NCBI GenBank assembly: GCA_009602725.1
Contig: WELB01000086.1
Location: 279,650 to 316,640 of the forward strand
From: Spirogloea muscicola
Taxonomy: Eukaryota > Streptophyta > Zygnematophyceae > Spirogloeales > Spirogloeaceae
Direction: 5' to 3'
Length of the DNA stretch: 36,991 bases
Shown here: positions 3,219-36,859 of the stretch, piece after piece
Layout of the letters: the number at the start of each line of letters is the position of its first letter
Position numbering within the stretch: the stretch's first letter is position 1
The notes under the pieces: model-generated
The model's input: the letters and a program-made list of their open reading frames with translations, nothing else
Told to the model about the DNA's origin: nothing
Database searches by the model: none
Translations under genes and position numbers: made by a program

Positions 3219-4988
3219 TCATAGACTGACTTTAGTGTGGCTGCTGAATTTACTAGCTGCGCAGGCCCTGGCCGCTGGTGCAGTGACGACACCGCAGTCG
3301 TAGATCATGACATCCTGCACAAATTCACCCTCATTGTCAGTCAGCAGTGCACTAACTGACAGTGACACACAGCAGTCAGACGTAGTCTTCTGCTGCATGA
3401 CCAATAAACAACATGTATGCTGCCAACATTTGTGTGGCAGCTTGGCTTTCGATGCGACCTGCGACGTCTCTCCGCTGCGATTGCCCAGGGACTCGATGGC
3501 CTTCACAACACCAAAGCCCTCAATCACTTGCCCAAAGACAACATGGCGGCCATTCAACCTGCAATCAGCACATTGACAGTACAGCAAATGTGAGCACCTT
3601 CAGAGATAAATATATCAGACGCTGGTGCCAAAAGGTATGACTGATGATCAAGCTTTTGAGCATGCATATGTTCAAACCCCGAAGTAGACCGCCAATTGTC
3701 AACTTATAACTGGCATGGCTGCTGCTGGTCAGAGATGCGTACCACGGTGTTGCAGCCACACACAGGAAGAACTGCGAGCCGTTTGTGTTTGGGCCCGAGT
3801 TGGCCATGGAGAGGACACCTGCGTGTCGCAGCAAGGCTAATTGTGCGTCATTTCAGAACAAGATGACCACTCTACGCAAAATGCTGCTGATGCAATGATG
3901 ACTTTGTTGATGCTGTGCTTCTATACACTTGACCGCAGCCCAAGCAGGAATCTCAGCACAGTCATTCTGTCAGCCTTCCGATTTGGGATCTCATTGTTTG
4001 TGATTGCAGGACAGGTCAGTGCCAGGTTGCTCTTTGAGCTCACGGTGCGGCAGCCCGCACCTGGGCCTTCGTGGCTGAGGACGAAGGTCTCGTCGGGGAA
4101 CTTGTTGCCGTAGATTGATCTACCCCCCGTGCCATTATCATTGGTGAAATCTCCGCCTGCTCGCAGATGGAGGAAGGTCAGACGCAACAAAGAGGACTAT
4201 TAAGAAGCTGATCAAAGTACCCCAAAACATTGGGACCTCGACTCCCAGGCTGTGAGCTCTAGGCTTCCTGGACTTCACAGTTCAGAAGGGGGATCCGTAG
4301 CAGGCACAAAACATCTACACGATACTTATTACATAATGGTGCACGACTGACTAGAGCATTATAACAATCACAAGTCACTCCACTTCCTGTAGGAAAACAA
4401 TTTCTTATTGTCTATGCTGCTCCGAAAGGTTATCTATGAATTCATTACGAGCACCGCCAATGCGGCGCGGCCTGCCAGAGCGGGGCGGCGGTGGAGTGAA
4501 GACTGGCCCTGGCACATGAAGCCGGGGATGATGCGGTGGAAGCGGGAGTTGCGGTAGCCCTCGCCCGCGGGCCGCTGGCAGAGCTGCAGGAAATTGTCGG
4601 CGGTGCGGGGCGCCATGTCCTTCTTCAGCTGCGCGCCGCCGCCGTCGCTCGGGCAGGTCTAGGGTTTAGGGGTTTAAGCTTTGGGGTTTTAGGGTTCAGG
4701 TTTATGGTTGGTCATTTTCAGGATCACATTAGGTTAAATTAGGTTAGGTCAGGTTACGTTAGATCAGGTTACGTCAGGCTAGGTTAAGTTAGGTTGGGGA
4801 TAAGGCGGGCGCCGGACCTCGATGACGACGCGGCCGAGGGGCGTGCCGGGGCCGTAGCGGCCGAGCACGAGGTCGAGGTAGACGCGGGGGTTGGACGGCG
4901 CTGGCGGGCCCAGCGGCGGTCGGTAGCCCTCGCCGCCGGCCGCCGCCCGCGCCGCCACATCCTCGGGCTTGCTGCCGCCCTGGCCCAT
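3219..4988 (-). CDS. Cyclophilin-type peptidyl-prolyl cis-trans isomerase, six exons
   Basis: Catalyses cis-trans isomerisation of Xaa-Pro bonds and assists folding. Exons on the minus strand are 4818-4988, 4508-4628, 4061-4156, 3743-3818, 3459-3558 and 3219-3314 (660 bases, 219 residues plus stop). The domain starts at about residue 31 (SNPRVYLDL). Family landmarks follow: [23 protein letters not shown] with catalytic Arg, Phe and Gln, [37 protein letters not shown] with the cyclosporin-contact Trp and the active His, and final IYDCGVV. The catalytic residues expected are all present, so it should be active. The ATG at 4988 was chosen because it gives MGQGGSK, a plausible N-myristoylation signal. 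An in-frame ATG at 5141 would add a poly-Ala leader. Intron 2 uses a GC donor (4507-4506), and intron 1 (4629-4817) contains telomere-like repeats. A Pro-rich frame over the GCC run at about 5005-5037 leaves the true N-terminus slightly uncertain. Confidence 0.9.
4661..4798. repeat. Degenerate telomere-like repeats inside cyclophilin intron 1
   Basis: The plus strand begins with TTTAGGG-like units (AGGGTTTAGGGGTTTAAG). It then passes into about 80 bases of degenerate 5-6-mers built from TTAGG, TCAGG and GGTTACG. In the sense of the gene (minus strand) it reads as CCTAAC/CCCTAAA. It occupies most of a 189-base intron and lies close to the exon 2 acceptor. Confidence 0.75.
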
Positions 4989-16574: not shown

Positions 16575-19500
16575 TCATGTTGCCACCATTGGCACAGGTG
16601 CTGCCCCTGTCCCTGCTGTCGCCGTCGGCGGTGGCAGCAGCGGAGGCTGCATCACGTGCTGCAGGGCCTTGTCAAAGTCCAGCACAAACGACCAGAGAGC
16701 TCCAAACACCGTCTGCACGTATCAGCAGAAAAATAAGCGGTCAGTCAGCTCGCACGGCACGCCTGATTATTGCGACCAGCGTATTGAGCCCCAATTAGGC
16801 ACCTCTGGCGCAGTGGTGTCAGCCTTCTCGCCTAGGAACATCGCCAGGCCCTGGAACGCCTCCCTGCCCGCGCACAAGCCAAGCGATCTTCTGGTCAAAA
16901 GCTGCAGCCAGTATAGAGGTAGTTATTGACAATCTAACTGCTGCTTGTTAGGCAAACCCATGATAATTGTGTCAAGAGCAGGTCAGAGAGGCAGCGCAAG
17001 AGCTGTACCGGCAGGCTGCAGCGGCATCCACCAGCTCGACTTGCCGGGCCTCTGCGGCCTCCAGGAAGTCACCCAGCCAGAGCGCGAAATGGCCCTCAGT
17101 CATGTCGCCGCCAGCAGCAGCGGCAGCGGCGCCCGACAGAGCAGCCGCCCGCTCGTCCCGCGCCGCCGCCATGCCGCGCTCGAGCGACGACAGCACCTCC
17201 ACAAGCTCCCCCTGGGCCACCCGAAAATGACAAGGAGACATCCATGGACCAGCCATGGCAGCTCTATCAGCACATAAAATCGACACTTTTGTACGGCATT
17301 TAGTACAGAAAATTTGATACTGACATGCTTAACTTTGAAGTGGAGTACATCATGCAGCACACTGAAAGCTAGGAACCTACCCCTCATCTGAGGCTAGCTC
17401 TAGATATGGGACCCCTTGACCTTAAAAGCAGATCATGGACAAACGAGCTCGCCATAAGTTACCTGAGACCAACGGGATGCAGCGCCGACGGCCTCCAGCT
17501 CCGCGGCGAGCTCCTGGCCAGGCGCCACAAGCGCCGCCTCCCCCATGGCCGCAGCCACGAACTCCAGGAACGACGTGGCACGAGCGAGCGCCCCAGAAAC
17601 GCTGCCAGGTCTCGGCTCGCCGTCGCTGCTGCTGTCATCTGCCGTTGGGGTGGGTGCAGCTGGTCCACGTTTTGGCTTCATGGGGTCGGGGCGCGCCGCT
17701 GGTACGCTGCCGGGCCTTCTTGGCTGAACCACCACCGCCAACACTGATGTCACCTTCAGGTCCGCGAGCTTCAATAGGGAGTCTAAGCGCACGCCCAAGG
17801 CGGAGCCTGAACATAAGTCCAACTTACAACAGTAGTGATCAGAAATATATGGAGTAAGCAGTCCCTCGTTCACCTTCTGCTTGAGGTGTAAGGGGGTTTC
17901 ATGAAGTTTACAAGCATAGGAGACTAGTCCAAAATTCTAAGCCTTTGACCCTCTCGCCCTTAGACCACTGACATGGAGCAATGCCCAAATTCGATGACCT
18001 GCAGCTCTTAGCCATTGTGTTACCTATGCAATGCTCTCTAGCTCAAGTCTGAGCTCAATTTAGGACCACAGGCATCCCGAGGTGTTGTCGAGTTGGGGCG
18101 ACCAGTCGGACTTGTGATACGCTAACAAGACAGACACCCCAAGTCGTCCATTTTAAATAGCCTCACGCCTTCAGGTTTAGATTTCGACTGGCTCACGCCT
18201 TAAGGGTTCTGACCTTAGATCTTTGACAACAACTGCTGCAGGTCAGGATTTAGCTCGTACAAGCACTTATCTAGCTCTTGTCAATACCAGCCAGTCATGG
18301 GCAGACACACAGGGCAGTACCTCGGGCCGTCCCTGCATTGAGCTCGTTGCCGGCGGCTAGGCAGGCGGCCAGAATGGAGCGTAGAAGCGCGCTGCCGCGC
18401 ACCTGCTTGCAGGCCTGCTGTACTGTTGCCAGTGCCTCCATCGCGTCCTTGACAACAGCATCAAAGTGGCGCACGAAAATCATCACCTGCATGCCCAATC
18501 GGCTATACCGCTGAGAGCTCTGAAATTACTGGGTCTGCAGATCAGGGGTAGAGTTCCACAACCTGACGTTGAATATTCACAAATCTTAAAAATGCCCCCA
18601 TTGTATGGTCTGCATGAAGTGATGGAAGTAGGAGAGCGTGAGGGGCAGAGATTGTTAGTTGAATAAGAAATGCAATCAGCTGTTGCATTGATTGATTAGT
18701 ACGTGAGGGTGAGCCAGACCTGCACTTTAGTGCGAAGGCGGGGGACCTGGGCCATGGCGGCAAGGAATTGCTCGGAGGATGTCAGGGTGTCCACGGGAAT
18801 CGTAGACTGCTTGAAGACCGCGACCTCCTCGTCAGTGGGTATCACCTGCACCGCTTTGGAAGATGAGCAAGGGAAACCAATCAGCACAGCTTGAAGGACA
18901 GCCGTGCCGCGGGGGCAAGCGGAAGAGCTAAGCAGACTAGCATGACCAAGGGGCTTTGTGTGTGAGACAAGAAGACATGCCGTATCGAAGCCCAATGATG
19001 TGCATGTACCGCAAACAGGCGGCGTGTAGAGTGTAAGAGGAGCACCAGAACCAAGACAGAGTGTTCGAGGAGAGGACTAAGACAGGAAGCAGAGAGAGAG
19101 GAGGTTGTCAAGAGTGGGAGGGAGAGGGGTTGACGGAAAGGAGGAGAGGAGTTAGAGAGGAAGAGGCCACAAGCGACGAGAAGGGGCAGAGGAGGAGGGA
19201 GGCACATGGGGAGAGGAACAGGGGACAGAGGAGCGAAGCAACGATTACAACAACGAAGCAACAATGGTAACAATGATAATATTGTAATTAACAATGATAT
19301 GGACGACGGTGTGACCATACTCAGGAGTAAGCGGGGCAGCGACGAGAAGAGCAGGCAGACAGTCGAAGGCAGGAGAAAGGAGAGAGGGGGCTCAGAAGAG
19401 AGAGGTAGAGTAGAGACTGAGATCCAAGTACAGGAATTTGGGGTTTCGGGTTAGGTGTTAGGGTTTGGATAATGGTTTAGAGATGTGCTAAGGAGCTGAT

Positions 19501-23000: not shown

Positions 23001-24559
23001 CAATGCCTGACCCTGGGCCTGACCAGGCAGACAGCATAGGCTTCATGTGACTCGGCACTACTTAGGCATCACTAAGTGTGAGCAGAAAGACTAGCATAAG
23101 CCATCGGCTCTACATGTACCCACTAAACCATTTGTCTCGGTCGATAATCTGTGGCCTTAATGAACCTAATGAGCCCTTTGAAGGCCAGACTCCTAGAACC
23201 ATGCAAAGCAAGTACAAGAAGGGTGACAGGCTGCTGCACCAGTTGTTGATCGACGCGCAGGCAGCAAAGAGGGTGTCGAGAGGGCAGACGCCCGCCCCCC
23301 GAGGCTGGTCCCAAGCGGCTCCGAGCTGCATGCGGCAAGTGAGCGATGTGCAGTCACGTTGCAGAGATTCCTTTTTACACGGCTCTTGACAAAAGTGCGA
23401 CCATTGGCTCCAATGGTGAAGCTCTGCTGGCAATCAGGCAGTCAACTCTGATGAAGTGCATGCCTCTAAATCCTGCTCATTTGAGACCTCGTTCATTGGC
23501 GGTAATGGCAGAGTCAAAATGTGACCACCACCTACTGCAACAAGCTTCTGCTTGCGGCTGAGGCTGTCACAAGGCTTGTCTACGCTTCCACTTAAATACC
23601 AATAAGTCGAATACCAACTTCGATGGGTTGTCCTGCCTTGGAGCCTCAAGCATATATGAGCAAGAAAGAGAAGATTGTTGACAGTCATGCAGCTGACAGA
23701 ATGGAAGAATCACCACTCACCTCGCACACATTGTTGCCAAAGAGTGCATAGAGCTCTGGACGCAGGAGCAGAGCGCCGAGGTTGACGAGCAACACGGTGT
23801 CCGGGTGATGCTGCGCCAGGAATGCCGCCACGTCCTTTAGGCACCGCACATACCTGCGCAGATACTGGCAGATAGGTCCTCACCTTGAAGAGCTAGGTCC
23901 ATGGAGTCGCAGTACAACAGACCAATCCTAGAGCTACAGTAGAGGCGAGACCACAAACTTCATCGGTTTCTACGACAGACTGCTGTCGGCAGCTGTCTGC
24001 ATTGGCATGCTGTTGATGGGCGAACTTGGATGAAGGCCAGACGGCGGCTCCACCACAAGGGCTCGTCAGCCTCGTGAGATTGAAACCCGTCATGCAGCGA
24101 AGAACTTGACTATGCACTACTCGGACTCCTGGAGAGGCTGGAGCGTGCAGAATTCACGCCTCTGCATGTGAACCCCCAATCTCACAAATTAATGGAAAGC
24201 CCTAAGCTTTTCTCCTCACAGCTATGGCTAGATTCACTAAACCGTATCCCTTAACTCTAACCGTAAAGATCAACCCCTGTTACCTGAACCTTAAACCTAG
24301 ACCCTCAACCCTAAATCCTAAACCCTAACCCTAACCCGGCATACCTGCGGTCGTCCTCCTGCTCGCCAACGTGCTCCACGTCGCTCTCGACCGCAAAGGC
24401 GAGGAGGCGCTCGTGGAGGTACTCTGGAAGGACCTCGTCCGGAGGAGGGCGCCGGTGTCGGCTGCCGCCGCCCCGCCGTCCAAAGCCACCGCCGCCGCCG
24501 CCGCCGCCACCGCCGCCGCCAAAGAGTGCGCTCAGGAGGCTGCTGGACCTGCGGAGCTC
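16575..24559 (-). CDS. Class II-type formin: PTEN-like/C2, FH1 and FH2 domains, 17 exons
   Basis: Nucleates and elongates actin filaments. Minus-strand exons: 24345-24559 (5' limit uncertain), 23721-23853, 23240-23325, 22801-22908, 22422-22623, 21992-22054, 21750-21797, 21437-21536, 21234-21328, 20603-20799, 19503-20396, 18720-18845, 18321-18486, 17463-17806, 17009-17211, 16803-16863 and 16575-16712; about 1,059 residues. The order is a PTEN-like fold (RRPPPDEVLPEYLHERLL, DTVLLVNLGALLLRPELY, EHVAVLHTRSHADGN) and a C2 domain (DGCRPYIKVW, IWGDVALSVHNW, LFVFAFHTGYIDTG, VPEDFFVDI). A proline-rich FH1 follows, then FH2 (GVFWTKLPQTKGTIWEDL, TRANNIAIMLTQFRMP, GNELNAGTARGSALGVRL, FGALWSFVLDFDKAL). 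The phosphatase loop lacks its Cys. The exon 19503-20396 does not stay in frame: the PP tract reads one base off the upstream frame, probably an assembly indel in the GCC run or at the n at 20132. The donor at 19502-19501 is GC. Confidence 0.9.
19060..19420. repeat. Purine-rich (GA) tract in a formin intron
   Basis: About 360 bases of the plus strand are strongly purine-biased, with AGAGAGGAGG-like runs, interrupted by an AT-rich stretch at about 19240-19300. In the sense of the gene it is a polypyrimidine tract within the intron 18846-19502. Such tracts can form triplex or slipped structures. A similar pyrimidine tract in sense orientation occurs in the UbiA-like intron. Confidence 0.6.
19440..19480. 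repeat. Short telomere-like stretch next to the formin GC donor
   Basis: The plus strand reads GGGTTTCGGGTTAGGTGTTAG and similar units. In gene sense these are CCCTAAC-like units starting about 20 bases inside the intron whose donor is the non-canonical GC at 19502-19501. Confidence 0.6.
24237..24338. repeat. Telomere-like repeats at the 5' end of a formin intron
   Basis: About 100 bases on the plus strand grade from degenerate to nearly perfect CCCTAAA/CCCTAA units. The best copies lie immediately beside the splice donor of exon 24345-24559. In gene sense the intron therefore begins GTATGCCGGGTTAGGGTTAG. Confidence 0.8.
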
Positions 24560-24657
24560 CTGCGTGACAGACGCAAGCGCAGCGCATGGCGCCTGAGAGC
24601 CAGCGGCTGCTCCTTGGGCATGGCCTCAGCTGCCACCAGCTCCGCCACTACCGCCGC

Positions 24658-24697
<40 letters not shown>

Positions 24698-24827
24698 TCC
24701 GCAGCCGCCGGCACTGACAGCGGCGCGGGGGCCGGAGATAGCTGCGGCGGCCAGCGCGGCCATGCTGACCTTCGCCTCGCCGTCCGCGTCGTGGTTGGCG
24801 TCCCATCGCCACCGCCGCGAACGGCCG
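24560..24827. other. GC-rich region upstream of the formin N-terminal exon
   Basis: An ATG on the minus strand at about 24762 starts MAALAAAAISGPRAAVSAGG followed by a poly-Gly run over the GCC repeat (about 24660-24700). It is a candidate formin start, but a stop comes at about 24626 unless spliced. Another frame gives MPKEQPLALRRHALRLRLS. No frame joins cleanly to 24559, so the true start may be here or in the gap. Confidence 0.3.
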
Positions 24828-25639
24828 NNNNNNNNNNNNNNNNNNNNNNNNNNNNNNNNNNNNNNNNNNNNNNNNNNNNNNNNNNNNNNNNNNNNNNNNN
24901 NNNNNNNNNNNNNNNNNNNNNNNNNNNNNNNNNNNNNNNNNNNNNNNNNNNNNNNNNNNNNNNNNNNNNNNNNNNNNNNNNNNNNNNNNNNNNNNNNNNN
25001 NNNNNNNNNNNNNNNNNNNNNNNNNNNNNNNNNNNNNNNNNNNNNNNNNNNNNNNNNNNNNNNNNNNNNNNNNNNNNNNNNNNNNNNNNNNNNNNNNNNN
25101 NNNNNNNNNNNNNNNNNNNNNNNNNNNNNNNNNNNNNNNNNNNNNNNNNNNNNNNNNNNNNNNNNNNNNNNNNNNNNNNNNNNNNNNNNNNNNNNNNNNN
25201 NNNNNNNNNNNNNNNNNNNNNNNNNNNNNNNNNNNNNNNNNNNNNNNNNNNNNNNNNNNNNNNNNNNNNNNNNNNNNNNNNNNNNNNNNNNNNNNNNNNN
25301 NNNNNNNNNNNNNNNNNNNNNNNNNNNNNNNNNNNNNNNNNNNNNNNNNNNNNNNNNNNNNNNNNNNNNNNNNNNNNNNNNNNNNNNNNNNNNNNNNNNN
25401 NNNNNNNNNNNNNNNNNNNNNNNNNNNNNNNNNNNNNNNNNNNNNNNNNNNNNNNNNNNNNNNNNNNNNNNNNNNNNNNNNNNNNNNNNNNNNNNNNNNN
25501 NNNNNNNNNNNNNNNNNNNNNNNNNNNNNNNNNNNNNNNNNNNNNNNNNNNNNNNNNNNNNNNNNNNNNNNNNNNNNNNNNNNNNNNNNNNNNNNNNNNN
25601 NNNNNNNNNNNNNNNNNNNNNNNNNNNNNNNNNNNNNNN
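24828..25639. other. Assembly gap (812 n)
   Basis: A run of undetermined bases. It separates the 5' part of the minus-strand formin from the first visible exon of the plus-strand D-lyxose isomerase-like gene. The promoters of both, and the start of the isomerase, are probably inside. Gap size may be an estimate. Confidence 0.99.
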
Positions 25640-26975
25640 CGCCGCGCGCCTGGCCTTCGCGCGCCACGACTGGGCTCTGCCGCCGCGGTGCGCGCTTCGC
25701 CGCCGCCGCCGCCGCCGCCGCCGTCGCCGCGAGTCTCGCCAGGGCGTACCTAAACCCCTAATCCGGAAACCTAACCCCAAAACCTAACCCTAAGTTGTTA
25801 AGCCCTTAACCGCAGGCCGCAGTGGGACGTGACGGGGTTTGGGCTGGGGGCCTTCGACGCCGCGGGCCTGGTGCTCGTCAACCTCGCCGACCTGCCGCAG
25901 TACTGCGAGAAGCTCATCTTCGCCCGCCGCCGCCAGGTCCGGCTCTCGCCCACCGAGCTCCGACTGACGCTGCAGAACCAGTACGCGACGGCGTAGCCAG
26001 AGTACATAAAACCAGAACCCAACCCAAACCCCAAAACTGACCCATAACCCGAACCCAAATCCAAACCACAATAAAAAGCCCTAACCTTATCAACGAGCGT
26101 TGAGAGCCGGCGGCGGCCTCCTCAGCGGCGCCTTTGGGCCGCCCATCTGGCCCGCCAGCCTCGTCATCGGCCGGCCGACATCCCAAGCCCTAACCCTTAA
26201 ACCCAACTCCTAGCCCTTAAATCCCAACTCTTAACCCTTCAACCCCAACTCCTAGCCCTTAAACCCTGATACTCCGACACCCCAACCCCTAAACCTTGAT
26301 CATTTCTTCTGAGCTGACCATTACAGCCGTCACCCATTACTGGAAGAGAATTTCTCTATAACCCTTAAACCCTGAACCCACGGAAGGCGGCGGCGCACAG
26401 CTGTGCATCATGCACTGCCACCGGCGGAAGCAGGAGGACATCATCGCGCGCGTGGGCACGCTGGCGCTGCGCCTGGCCAGTGCGACGGGCGACGCCGCCA
26501 ACCTGCTCGAGGACGTGACCGCCGACCGCGGCGGCCCGCCCGTCCGCGCGCTCGTCAACGGCGTGGAGCACTTTGTCGAGAGCAACTCGGTCCTCTACCT
26601 TAATGCAGGTTTCCTAACCACAATCCCCAGCCTGACATATGCATCCATCAAGACCCATTTAGATTTAAGTCCTAGGGTTCAGGATTGAGGGTTTAGGAAA
26701 GTGTAGGGTTTAGGGTGCTAAATACTCTCTTTGTCCAATCCTCGTTGCTTGGTGCCTGCTGATTTGGTGGCTATTGGCGTGCAGGCGAGCGCGTGACTGT
26801 GTACCCCGGCGTTTTTCACGAGTTCTGGCCTGTCTCGGACTACTGCATCATCGGCGAGGTGTCGACGGCCAACGATGACCAGCACGATAACGTGTTTGAG
26901 AACCGCTCCGCTGGTCGCTTCGAGTCAGTCATCGAGGATGAGCCCGCGCTCGAGGGCCTGCTTGGCAAGAAGTGA
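25640..26975 (+). CDS. D-lyxose ketol-isomerase-like cupin, 5' end in gap
   Basis: The family interconverts D-lyxose and D-xylulose (and often D-mannose and D-fructose) in a metal-binding cupin barrel. Exons are 25640-25745, 25823-25936, 26401-26608 and 26785-26975; 205 residues are visible. Landmarks are HDWALPP at the N-terminal helices, WDVTGFGLGAFDAAGLVL, YCEKLIF, then the metal site MHCHRRKQEDI (His, His and Glu in the family spacing HxHxxxxE), VNGVEHFVESNSVLYLNAG, YPGVFHEFWP with the fourth ligand His, and GEVSTANDD, NVFENRSAGRF. All four expected metal ligands are present. The acceptor of the second exon could instead be at 25816 with a donor 22 bases earlier, because the GCC run leaves the join ambiguous. 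The introns carry telomere-like repeats. A bacterial-type sugar isomerase in a multi-intron nuclear gene suggests old transfer or a rare eukaryotic lineage. Confidence 0.85.
25749..25812. repeat. Telomere-like repeats filling isomerase intron 1
   Basis: Almost the whole 77-base intron is built of CCTAAACCCC, CCTAACCCC and CCTAACCCTAAG units on the plus (sense) strand. They begin two bases after the donor GT. Confidence 0.8.
26010..26380. repeat. Telomere-like repeats in isomerase intron 2 (three blocks)
   Basis: Blocks at about 26010-26090, 26185-26300 and 26358-26380 consist of AACCCAAACCCC, AACCCTTAAACCC and similar units on the sense strand. They are split by a GC-rich stretch (26091-26184) with no telomere similarity. 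The middle block looks like a higher-order tandem of about 27-30 bases (CCCAACTCCTAGCCCTTAAA). Confidence 0.75.
26669..26720. repeat. Telomere-like repeats in isomerase intron 3 (G-rich sense)
   Basis: The sense strand reads TAGGGTTCAGG, TTGAGGGTTTAGG and TAGGGTTTAGGG. This is the opposite orientation to the blocks in introns 1 and 2 of the same gene. Confidence 0.75.
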
Positions 26976-35600: not shown

Positions 35601-36859
35601 TTCACTTGAGGTATGATTAAGCTCTTGTTTAAGGAAATGAGAGTGGAACTTGTGGGGTGAATGCTCTCCTTTGACATTGATTTGTGCATTGCTCTCCAGG
35701 TACCACAGAGGACAGGTCTGCAGCTGAGGAGCAAGCAAGCTGCTGGCGCTGGAGCTCTCACCTGTGTCGTCCACGGTGACCAGCCGGGACAGCACGACGG
35801 AGTGCAACACCTGGGCAACGGCAAGCAGATATCAGCCAGCAGACAGTAATTGAAGACACAGTCGGTAAACTTTCTACACCATAGTGGCATGTAGCCAGTG
35901 TGATGAGTAGCAACATTGATAGGGTTAGAGCAGATGACTGTTCGGCTTTCGCTGTGCGGAGCCCAATGTCGAGAAGCGATAGGGCGCGTGGTGTCACAGC
36001 TGACGGCAATACCTCGGCACCAGAGTGGCTCCGGCTGCGGTCCCGGCTGCCATTGACACCAGAGGGCGACGACCGAGTGCGCACGATGTTGTTACTACCC
36101 GAAGGCAGCTTCAGGGGCTGGTAGTGGAAGGAGGCGTTCCCGCTCTGCACACAGCAGTCTTTATGGGCTTGAGCTCGCACTAGTAGAAATGACTTTCCTA
36201 ACCGGCAATGCTGGCTCGTCTTGTCGGAGATTGTCTCATAACGGTGGAGTTGTAGGTTAAAGCCCTGCTAACCCTACTGTTACTAACGGGTGTACAGCTC
36301 AGTGGGCAGAGCATTGGGCTTTTAATCTAGTAGTCACAGATTCAAGCCCTGCTACACTCAGTCTAATCGGAGATTGTCTCATAACGGTGATATTGTGAAC
36401 TCAAGCCCTATTGAGCCTACTGTTAATAACAGGTGTACAGCTCAGTTGGCAAAGCACTGGGCTTTTAACCCAATGGTCGCAGGTTCAAGCCCTGCGATAC
36501 TCAGTCTTGTCGGAGATTGTCCCATTATGGTGATATTGTAGGTGCAAGCCCTACTAAGCCTACCATTACTAACGGGTGTACAGCTCAACTGACGAAGCAA
36601 CGGACTTCCAATCTAAAGGTCGCAGGTTCAAGCCCTGCTACGCTCAGGCGGGTATGATGGAACTGGATTAGGTTCTAATGATTTTTCGTGGGAGTCATCT
36701 CCGGCGTACCTGCGGGCTGTTGTGGTCGGCGTCGAACAGGGCGCTGAGCTTGGCGGCAGCGGCGGCGGCACGGCGGCCGGCGGCGGAGTCGTCCTCGTCG
36801 AAGTCGAGCTCGTCGTGGCTCGCCGCGCCCAGGCTGGGCAGCCGCGTCAAGGAGGCGGC
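29630..36859 (-). CDS. FKBP15-like protein: WH1-like N-terminus, FKBP domain, coiled coil; 16 exons
   Basis: Animal FKBP15 (WAFL) links actin and endosome transport; the role here is inferred. Minus-strand exons: 36710-36859, 36013-36144, 35762-35810, 35507-35568, 35268-35336, 35007-35074, 34634-34730, 34441-34494, 34116-34194, 33952-33996, 33588-33688, 32131-33336, 31473-31812, 30613-31252, 30101-30149 and 29630-29755; 3,267 bases, 1,088 residues plus stop, all phases agreeing. The start shows DFDEDDS, KLSALFDADHNSPQ, then SGNASFHYQPLKLP, as in FKBP15. WH1-like strands follow (KLFGTVGAVVLGHRGVAQ, LRHLLVYDKKK, SEDWEGLARALALAR). The FKBP region includes GDLVVLAYTLWAE, LEQGVLGMSKGSCRFLVVP, LGYG and VPAGAALFYDVTVL. 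After it come an acidic Ser-rich linker and Ala/Glu/Gln coiled coils. The FD and W of the FKBP pocket are missing. The donor at 33951-33950 is GC. The true start is upstream of 36859, perhaps outside the window. Confidence 0.92.
36288..36360 (+). pseudogene. tRNA-Lys(TTT)-like copy 1, organellar/bacterial type
   Basis: It is 73 bases ending in A73. The acceptor GGGTGTA pairs with TACACTC in all seven positions (one G-T). The D arm is CAGCTCAGTGGGCAGAGC, and the anticodon loop CTTTTAA gives anticodon TTT. Position 8 is C instead of the usual T, and the T stem has two mismatches, so function is doubtful. The sequence resembles bacterial and plant-mitochondrial tRNA-Lys more than a eukaryotic cytosolic one. 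No intragenic CCA. Confidence 0.6.
36431..36503 (+). pseudogene. tRNA-Lys(TTT)-like copy 2
   Basis: It is 73 bases. The T arm GCAGG-TTCAAGC-CCTGC is perfect, the anticodon loop CTTTTAA (TTT) has a four-pair stem, and the D arm is GCTCAGTTGGCAAAGC. The acceptor AGGTGTA against GATACTC loses both end pairs. Position 8 is C. Different arms are intact here and in copy 1, as expected for independent decay of duplicates. Confidence 0.6.
36574..36646 (+). pseudogene. tRNA-Lys-like copy 3 with altered anticodon loop
   Basis: It is 73 bases. The acceptor (GGGTGTA with TACGCTC) and T arm are intact, allowing G-T pairs. The anticodon loop has changed to CTTCCAA, which would read TCC, and its stem is mostly unpaired. 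Position 8 is C. A decayed copy of the Lys sequence is more likely than a genuine Gly tRNA. Confidence 0.55.

What the first reader, a model, noticed from the sequence alone, without database searches (positions are those of the whole stretch)
24237..26720. Telomere-like repeats occupy introns of two head-to-head genes, in both orientations
Seen: degenerate CCCTAAA/TTTAGGG-type DNA starts almost at the donor of a formin intron (24237-24338), fills isomerase intron 1 (25749-25812), and recurs in introns 2 and 3 (26010-26380, 26669-26720). In every case the exons on either side join in frame, so the repeats stop at splice sites. Orientation relative to the gene is G-rich in two introns and C-rich in two. 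Known: interstitial telomeric repeats arise by break repair or telomerase insertion, and introner-like elements create introns in some algae. Inference: telomere-like DNA may have seeded or enlarged introns here.
Basis: partly seen in the sequence, partly recalled or inferred. Interest (0 to 1): 0.75.

Follow-up and report, generated by a model that had tools for sequence, protein, structure and literature searches.

The report
Old telomere-like repeats inside algal introns
Short, worn stretches of chromosome-end repeat sit inside ordinary introns of several genes of what is probably a green alga; they are real and old, but they look like passengers in introns that already existed rather than the makers of those introns.

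Summary
Details need correcting: isomerase intron 1 is 128 nt (25688-25815) and only its 3' half is telomere-like; intron 2 is 464 nt with unrelated DNA inside; the repeats mostly do not stop at splice sites.

Many loci of this genome exist in two to four diverged copies. In 12 repeat-bearing intron groups, 33 of 33 copies have the intron and 32 of 33 keep a repeat scoring at least 24 (two of them only 24-30). So the repeats are not assembly joins, are older than the copies' divergence, and change length by indels. No copy lacks the intron. One repeat-bearing intron (CCT-zeta-like) shares residue and phase with a repeat-free intron of a paralogue, which suggests that the repeat joined an older intron.

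Genome-wide the motif is about ten times its reversed control. Repeats lie near donor-side exon ends more often than random placements, but within introns position and orientation show no clear bias. Best reading: short interstitial telomeric repeats, probably break-repair insertions, tolerated in introns. Enlarging introns is supported; seeding them is not, though not excluded.

The parts
23854..24344 (-). Intron of the formin-side gene (491 nt), GTATGC...GCGCAG
   Evidence: Joins ...EDDRR to YVRCLK in frame; conserved in the C320 copy with an intron of 518 nt. No RNA data.
24237..24337 (-). Telomere-like repeat, G-rich in the gene's sense, starts 7 nt after the donor
   Evidence: Score 87; 142 bp, score 134, in C320
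25641..25687 (+). D-lyxose isomerase, end of an exon cut by the N gap before it
   Evidence: Frame ...AFARHDWALPPR
25688..25815 (+). Isomerase intron 1 (128 nt)
   Evidence: Donor GTGCGC here, GTGAGC in C2 and C320; lengths 128, 140, 121 nt
25749..25793 (+). Telomere-like repeat, C-rich sense
   Evidence: Score 47; 60 and 50 in the other copies
25816..25936 (+). Isomerase exon
   Evidence: PF07385; boundary
25937..26400 (+). Isomerase intron 2 (464 nt)
   Evidence: Lengths 464, 552, 524 nt in the three copies; acceptor chosen to keep the Pfam alignment whole
26007..26067 (+). Telomere-like repeat, C-rich sense
   Evidence: Score 40
26182..26295 (+). Telomere-like repeat, C-rich sense, with a longer repeat unit of 42 or 21 bp
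   Evidence: Score 78; tandem repeat finder rows
26401..26608 (+). Isomerase exon
26609..26784 (+). Isomerase intron 3 (176 nt)
   Evidence: Lengths 176, 197, 176 nt in the three copies
26658..26716 (+). Telomere-like repeat, G-rich sense
   Evidence: Score 51; 32 and 55 in the other copies
26785..26975 (+). Isomerase last exon with stop
4629..4817 (-). Cyclophilin intron holding a telomere-like repeat at 4656-4709 (C-rich sense) and a 5-bp CCTAA-type repeat at about 4729-4795
   Evidence: PF00160 over the joined exons. No close second copy found.
19437..19480 (-). Telomere-like repeat, C-rich in the sense of the formin FH2 exon next to it
   Evidence: Score 41; FH2 33.1 bits, just under Pfam's cut-off of 34.8; donor not resolved

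Best explanation
These are short interstitial telomeric repeats lodged in introns that already existed. Telomere-type DNA was put in at internal sites, most likely during repair of double-strand breaks by telomerase or by capture of telomeric DNA (inferred). Insertions that hit exons or splice signals were lost, so survivors lie in intron interiors and in intergenic DNA (inferred). The arrays then decayed and changed length, lengthening or shortening the intron (shown between gene copies). Splicing removes them whichever strand is sense, so they need no function of their own. Shown: presence, intron location by gene model, age older than the copies' divergence, length change, no intronless copy among 33, no orientation bias in 16 introns. 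Inferred: break-repair origin, neutrality, actual splicing.
For: CCCTAAAx2 with up to 2 mismatches: 9152 matches in 153.1 Mb against 891 for the reversed control. Arrays at the starts of contigs C10 and C22 make TTTAGGG the probable telomere. Intron present in 33 of 33 copies of 12 groups; repeat at score 24 or more in 32 of 33 (alignments). Both splice sites were located by exact context in 31 of 33; for the two L039 copies the intron rests on flanking exon matches. Length change: tRNA-synthetase-like scores 87, 83, 23; L040 group 86 in C1 against 24 and 30 in C52 and C10, which hold other DNA and longer introns (228, 388, 410 nt). The CCT-zeta-like intron with repeat and the CCT-delta-like intron (105 nt) without share residue and phase. 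Orientation 9 C-rich to 7 G-rich in 16 modelled introns, and mean relative position fits uniform placement once 6 nt at the donor and 40 nt at the acceptor are set aside (p 0.22). Precedent in mammals: insertion at repaired breaks, deletions frequent, none in human exons, 31% in human introns, in line with chance (PMC7215372, PMC2246262; passages seen).
Against: No clean empty site was found, so insertion by break repair is not shown here; growth of a chance seed by slippage is not excluded. Repeats lie within 45 nt of a donor-side exon end at 12 of 40 sites against 11.7% of random placements (binomial p 0.0016, or 0.004 for 11 of 39 after merging one homologous pair), and the donor distance is the smaller in 13 of 16 introns (p 0.02), so a donor-side preference may exist that plain neutrality does not predict. 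The window is denser (7 segments in 37 kb) than random sequence (1 weak in 52 kb). Cyclophilin and PLD-like paralogues lack the intron.
Confidence: 0.75

Rival explanations
1. Telomeric DNA inserted into coding sequence and became the intron itself (intron birth, introner-like), later decaying to internal repeats.
For: The amine-oxidase-like intron starts 2 nt before a G-rich repeat and ends near a C-rich one in both copies, and folds into a long hairpin (z -2.2 and -3.0). Cyclophilin paralogues (42-44% identity) align straight across the junction where the repeat-bearing intron lies; PLD-like paralogues (45-46%) also span it, but with about 28 query residues unmatched. Repeats are enriched near donor-side exon ends.
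Against: 33 of 33 copies have the intron. The CCT intron site is shared with a repeat-free paralogue. Most repeats lie tens of bases from both splice sites. No shared element from donor to acceptor was seen.
Confidence: 0.08
2. Slippage: chance CCCTAAA-like seeds in C-rich or G-rich intron DNA expanded as ordinary microsatellites, with no tie to telomeres.
For: The arrays are degenerate, differ in length between copies and include related units (42/21 bp in intron 2, a 5-bp CCTAA type in the cyclophilin intron). Other permuted units such as CCTCAAA also hit (15 segments against 20).
Against: The exact telomere motif is ten times its reversed control, and CCCTAAACCTTAAACC gave 21 matches against 0 for its reversal. 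The hits to permuted units were not checked for overlap with the telomere-like segments.
Confidence: 0.12
3. The repeats are regulatory, like plant telo boxes bound by TRB-type proteins near gene starts.
For: Telo boxes are commoner in the first two introns of Arabidopsis genes (PMC3022908, passages seen); the repeats here flank the gap between two head-to-head genes.
Against: Repeats also lie in the last isomerase intron and in mid-gene introns. Both the sequence and the length of the arrays change much between copies, unlike a conserved site.
Confidence: 0.05

Closest known systems
Short interstitial telomeric sequences of mammals (PMC2246262, PMC7215372; passages seen)
   Same: Short telomere-type arrays at scattered internal sites, found in introns and not in human exons
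   Different: Here more degenerate, plant-type TTTAGGG, and shared by diverged copies; no empty site seen, so the one-step insertion is untested
Plant telo boxes (PMC3022908; passages seen)
   Same: Telomere motif within introns in a TTTAGGG genome
   Different: Telo boxes are single 8-bp motifs concentrated in 5' regions; these are arrays of about 15-115 bp, also in late introns
Introner elements of algae (recalled, no paper read on them)
   Same: Repeated DNA associated with introns in algae
   Different: No shared element from splice site to splice site found, no intronless copy, repeats mostly internal to the intron

Membership tests
Short interstitial telomeric sequence | Tandem motif of the species' own telomere type at an internal site | tested here: met
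   CCCTAAA arrays at two contig starts and at internal sites
Short interstitial telomeric sequence | One-step appearance against an empty orthologous site | tested here: inconclusive
   12 groups compared; the two that vary most (L040, tRNA-synthetase-like) keep remnants
Short interstitial telomeric sequence | Absent from exons | tested here: inconclusive
   The modelled cases lie in introns, but exons at most of the 40 sites are only predicted and 11 of 40 were called as introns
Introner element | Many introns share one sequence from donor to acceptor | tested here: not met
   Intron ends differ between groups; the one look-alike pair gave 44 genome matches against 13 reversed for its 3' end. 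No genome-wide intron clustering was done.
Introner element | Presence/absence of the whole intron between close copies | tested here: not met
   33 of 33 copies have it
Introner element | Target-site duplication at the intron edges | not tested
   No intronless close copy to compare
Telo-box regulatory element | Concentration in 5' introns or 5'UTR | tested here: inconclusive
   Early and late introns both seen; too few whole gene models to count
Telo-box regulatory element | Bound by telomere-repeat-binding proteins with effect on expression | not testable with these tools
   Needs experiments

The most novel reading that the evidence does not exclude
Telomeric insertions can create introns in this lineage: inverted telomere repeats near the two ends of an insertion fold into a hairpin that brings the splice sites together, as in the amine-oxidase-like intron, and older ones have decayed to the interior arrays seen elsewhere.
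Probability: 0.06. Interest if true: 0.75.

Novelty: new member of a known kind. Interest (0 to 1): 0.3.

Why it matters
It gives a multi-copy, probably algal, genome in which the fate of intron-borne telomeric repeats can be followed copy by copy, and it shows how a repeat that seems to fill an intron can mislead when the donor is misplaced. If any such intron were shown to be born from a telomeric insertion, that would add a route to the short list of intron-gain mechanisms.

Tried and rejected
Shared intron ends: the cyclophilin intron and isomerase intron 2 begin GTCCGGC and end GGCGGCGCRCAG|CTG. In the window the 3'-end pattern had 3 matches within 2 mismatches (chance mean 0.45) and the 5'-end pattern 2 (chance mean 0.14), chosen after the fact; the genome count of the 3' end is 44 against 13 reversed and the word is CCG-rich. 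No family was claimed.

Isomerase intron 1 as a wholly telomeric intron: rejected once the GTGAGC donor was seen in the other copies.

Donor heptamer near the repeat: AGGTGAG 15-45 nt before CCCTAAACC gave 11 matches against 2 for the reversed heptamer. Not used as proof, because a donor word is expected to be commoner than its reversal anyway.

Donor-side preference: 12 of 28 donor-side neighbours within 45 nt against 15.1% of placements in the same loci, acceptor side 4 of 35 against 15.7%; against independent random loci 12 of 40 against 11.7%, acceptor side 4 of 40 against 11.8%. Sites called as introns: 11 of 40 against 101 of 600 random placements, a weak excess that I did not test further.

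Rows left out: of 21 sites, 20 were fetched (C27:903822 left out). From the rows that one search listed (only the first places are listed), 20 isolated sites were chosen and array sites skipped. The C74 copy of the amine-oxidase-like gene was dropped because it does not align past part of the first exon. Script-called introns in L034, L051, L050 minus strand and L007 215-555 were not used. L028, L046 and L059 are in the 16-intron table without a checked second copy and with less certain boundaries; that table was typed by hand. Random placements came from 15 of 20 random loci; the other five gave none (N runs). For isomerase intron 2 the script preferred an acceptor at 26433; I use 26400 because it keeps the Pfam alignment whole. 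In one search I entered exon 2 one base too long, and the C188 intron one base too long. The codon model was scored on the exons it was trained on (62 of 72 found), so its recall is optimistic.

Literature: eight of ten searches used. Among the titles and abstract starts listed I saw none that reports telomere-like arrays as an intron feature of a green alga; only the listed papers were looked at, and most subscription journals are not held.
Full report
What is there. The window (contig C86, 279650-316640, of a 153.1-Mb assembly in 471 contigs) holds degenerate telomere-type repeats at seven places. Exact arrays lie at the start of contig C10 (from base 1) and of C22 (from base 22), so TTTAGGG is the likely telomere of this organism. 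It is unnamed; that it is a green alga is my inference (TTTAGGG is reported for Chlorella and Coccomyxa: PMC12636532, passages seen). The chance control is clear: 11 matches to CCCTAAAx2 with up to 2 mismatches against a shuffle mean of 0.07, and 1 segment in ten dinucleotide shuffles of the window plus L001-L019 against 20 in the real sequence. Permuted units such as CCTCAAA and AAATCCC also scored (15 and 9 segments); I did not check how far these overlap with the 20, but degenerate C-rich arrays can match several units.

Gene models. The plus-strand gene is a D-lyxose isomerase (PF07385, E 1.1e-36). Its introns are 25688-25815, 25937-26400 and 26609-26784. The minus-strand gene on the other side has an intron 24344-23854 whose repeat starts 7 nt from the donor. 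An FH2 exon lies further along that strand (33.1 bits, just under the Pfam cut-off); that both belong to one formin gene is inferred, and the N-terminal piece had no match over a Pfam cut-off. A further repeat lies in a cyclophilin intron, 4629-4817.

Copies. The isomerase search gave nine matches in three sets, on C86, C2 and C320, at 91-97% amino-acid identity; the aligned DNA pieces of the loci are 82-88% identical (the long ones 84-85%). The three introns lie at the same places with matching splice sites and telomere-like DNA in the same orientation, with many indels inside. The chaperonin search shows similar sets of two or three elsewhere. The repeats therefore are not assembly joins and are older than the divergence of the copies.

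More introns. Forty repeat sites chosen by motif alone were fetched, exons were predicted with a codon model trained on chaperonin exons, and introns were modelled. In the short modelled introns the repeat begins 25-64 nt after the donor and ends 57-85 nt before the acceptor. One search with exon pairs of ten genes located further copies; the introns of eight groups were aligned (the cut part was partly redone). With isomerase introns 1-3 and the CCT-zeta-like intron, 12 groups with 33 copies were examined: the intron is present in 33 of 33, both splice sites were found by exact context in 31 of 33 (the two L039 copies rest on flanking exon matches), and a repeat scoring at least 24 is present in 32 of 33. 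The exception is the C45 copy of the tRNA-synthetase-like gene (score 23, intron 123 nt against 175 and 174); C52 and C10 of the L040 group are marginal (24 and 30) and hold other DNA in longer introns where C1 has its array. The cyclophilin and PLD-like genes had no close second copy. Gene names other than those with a Pfam call (isomerase, cyclophilin, FH2, Cpn60/TCP1) are recalled from sequence look, not from a call.

Insertion or birth. The CCT-zeta-like intron with the repeat follows TTLRTK; the CCT-delta-like intron without it, 105 nt long, follows TSLNSK or TALNSK at the same profile position and phase (that stretch is in frame without stops in both copies, so its being an intron rests on the conserved SK-VVSQYSS join, which is recalled). 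The simplest reading is that the repeat came later than the intron. Against this, cyclophilin paralogues at 42-44% identity align straight across the junction where the repeat-bearing intron lies, and PLD-like paralogues at 45-46% also span theirs, with about 28 query residues unmatched; gain in one paralogue or loss in the others is open there. The amine-oxidase-like intron has a G-rich array 2 nt after its donor and a C-rich array near its acceptor in both copies, and folds into a long hairpin (z -2.2 and -3.0); it is one group of twelve, and the isomerase and formin-side introns show no such structure (z between -0.95 and +1.8).

Position and orientation. Within 45 nt of a donor-side exon end lie 12 of 40 repeats against 11.7% of random placements in independent loci; on the acceptor side 4 of 40 against 11.8%. 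In 16 modelled introns the donor distance is the smaller in 13 (p 0.02), but once the space needed for splice signals is set aside the mean position is compatible with uniform placement (p 0.22), and orientation is 9 C-rich to 7 G-rich. I read this as repeats lying in the unconstrained interior of mostly short introns.

Density. The motif count genome-wide is 9152 against 891 reversed; random sequence held 1 weak segment in 52 kb, and the 40 fetched loci held 9 further segments in 114 kb.

Comparison with the literature. Mammalian interstitial telomeric sequences arose in one step at repaired breaks, often with small deletions (PMC2246262, PMC7215372; passages seen); none were in human exons and 31% were in introns, as expected by chance. 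In Arabidopsis single telo boxes are commoner in the first two introns (PMC3022908, passages seen). A review notes interstitial telomeric sequences in some plants and their instability (PMC6410037, passages seen). The finding fits the first kind best, with the one-step insertion itself untested here.

Noticed in passing
G000, contigs C86, C2, C320 and others: Many loci tested occur in two to four copies at roughly 82-88% DNA identity, as if the assembly held about three diverged genomes of some 50 Mb; one DnaJ-like gene has two copies 1.1 Mb apart on contig C1, one of them nearly identical to a copy on C44.
   Followed up: partly
G000:C27:905790-906261: A telomere array runs TTTAGGG-wise and then turns to CCCTAAA within a few bases, as at an end-to-end fusion or a mis-join (listing).
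   Followed up: no
window 36224-36647: A 143-bp unit repeated about three times in tandem overlaps a tRNA-Lys(TTT); only one copy is recognised as a tRNA (36431-36503).
   Followed up: no
window 4729-4795: A 5-bp CCTAA-type repeat lies beside the 7-bp telomere-like repeat in the same cyclophilin intron.
   Followed up: no
window 4629-4817 and 25937-26400: The two introns share look-alike ends (GTCCGGC... and ...GGCGGCGCRCAG|CTG) though their genes are unrelated.
   Followed up: partly
window 24829-25639; L001 1-5124; L002 5161-9170: All three copies have an N run between the head-to-head genes, of different sizes; perhaps a hard-to-sequence CCG-rich stretch.
   Followed up: no
L030 1494-1553; G000:C160:263405-263460: G-rich and C-rich telomere-like repeats lie back to back, as arms of an inverted repeat.
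   Followed up: no
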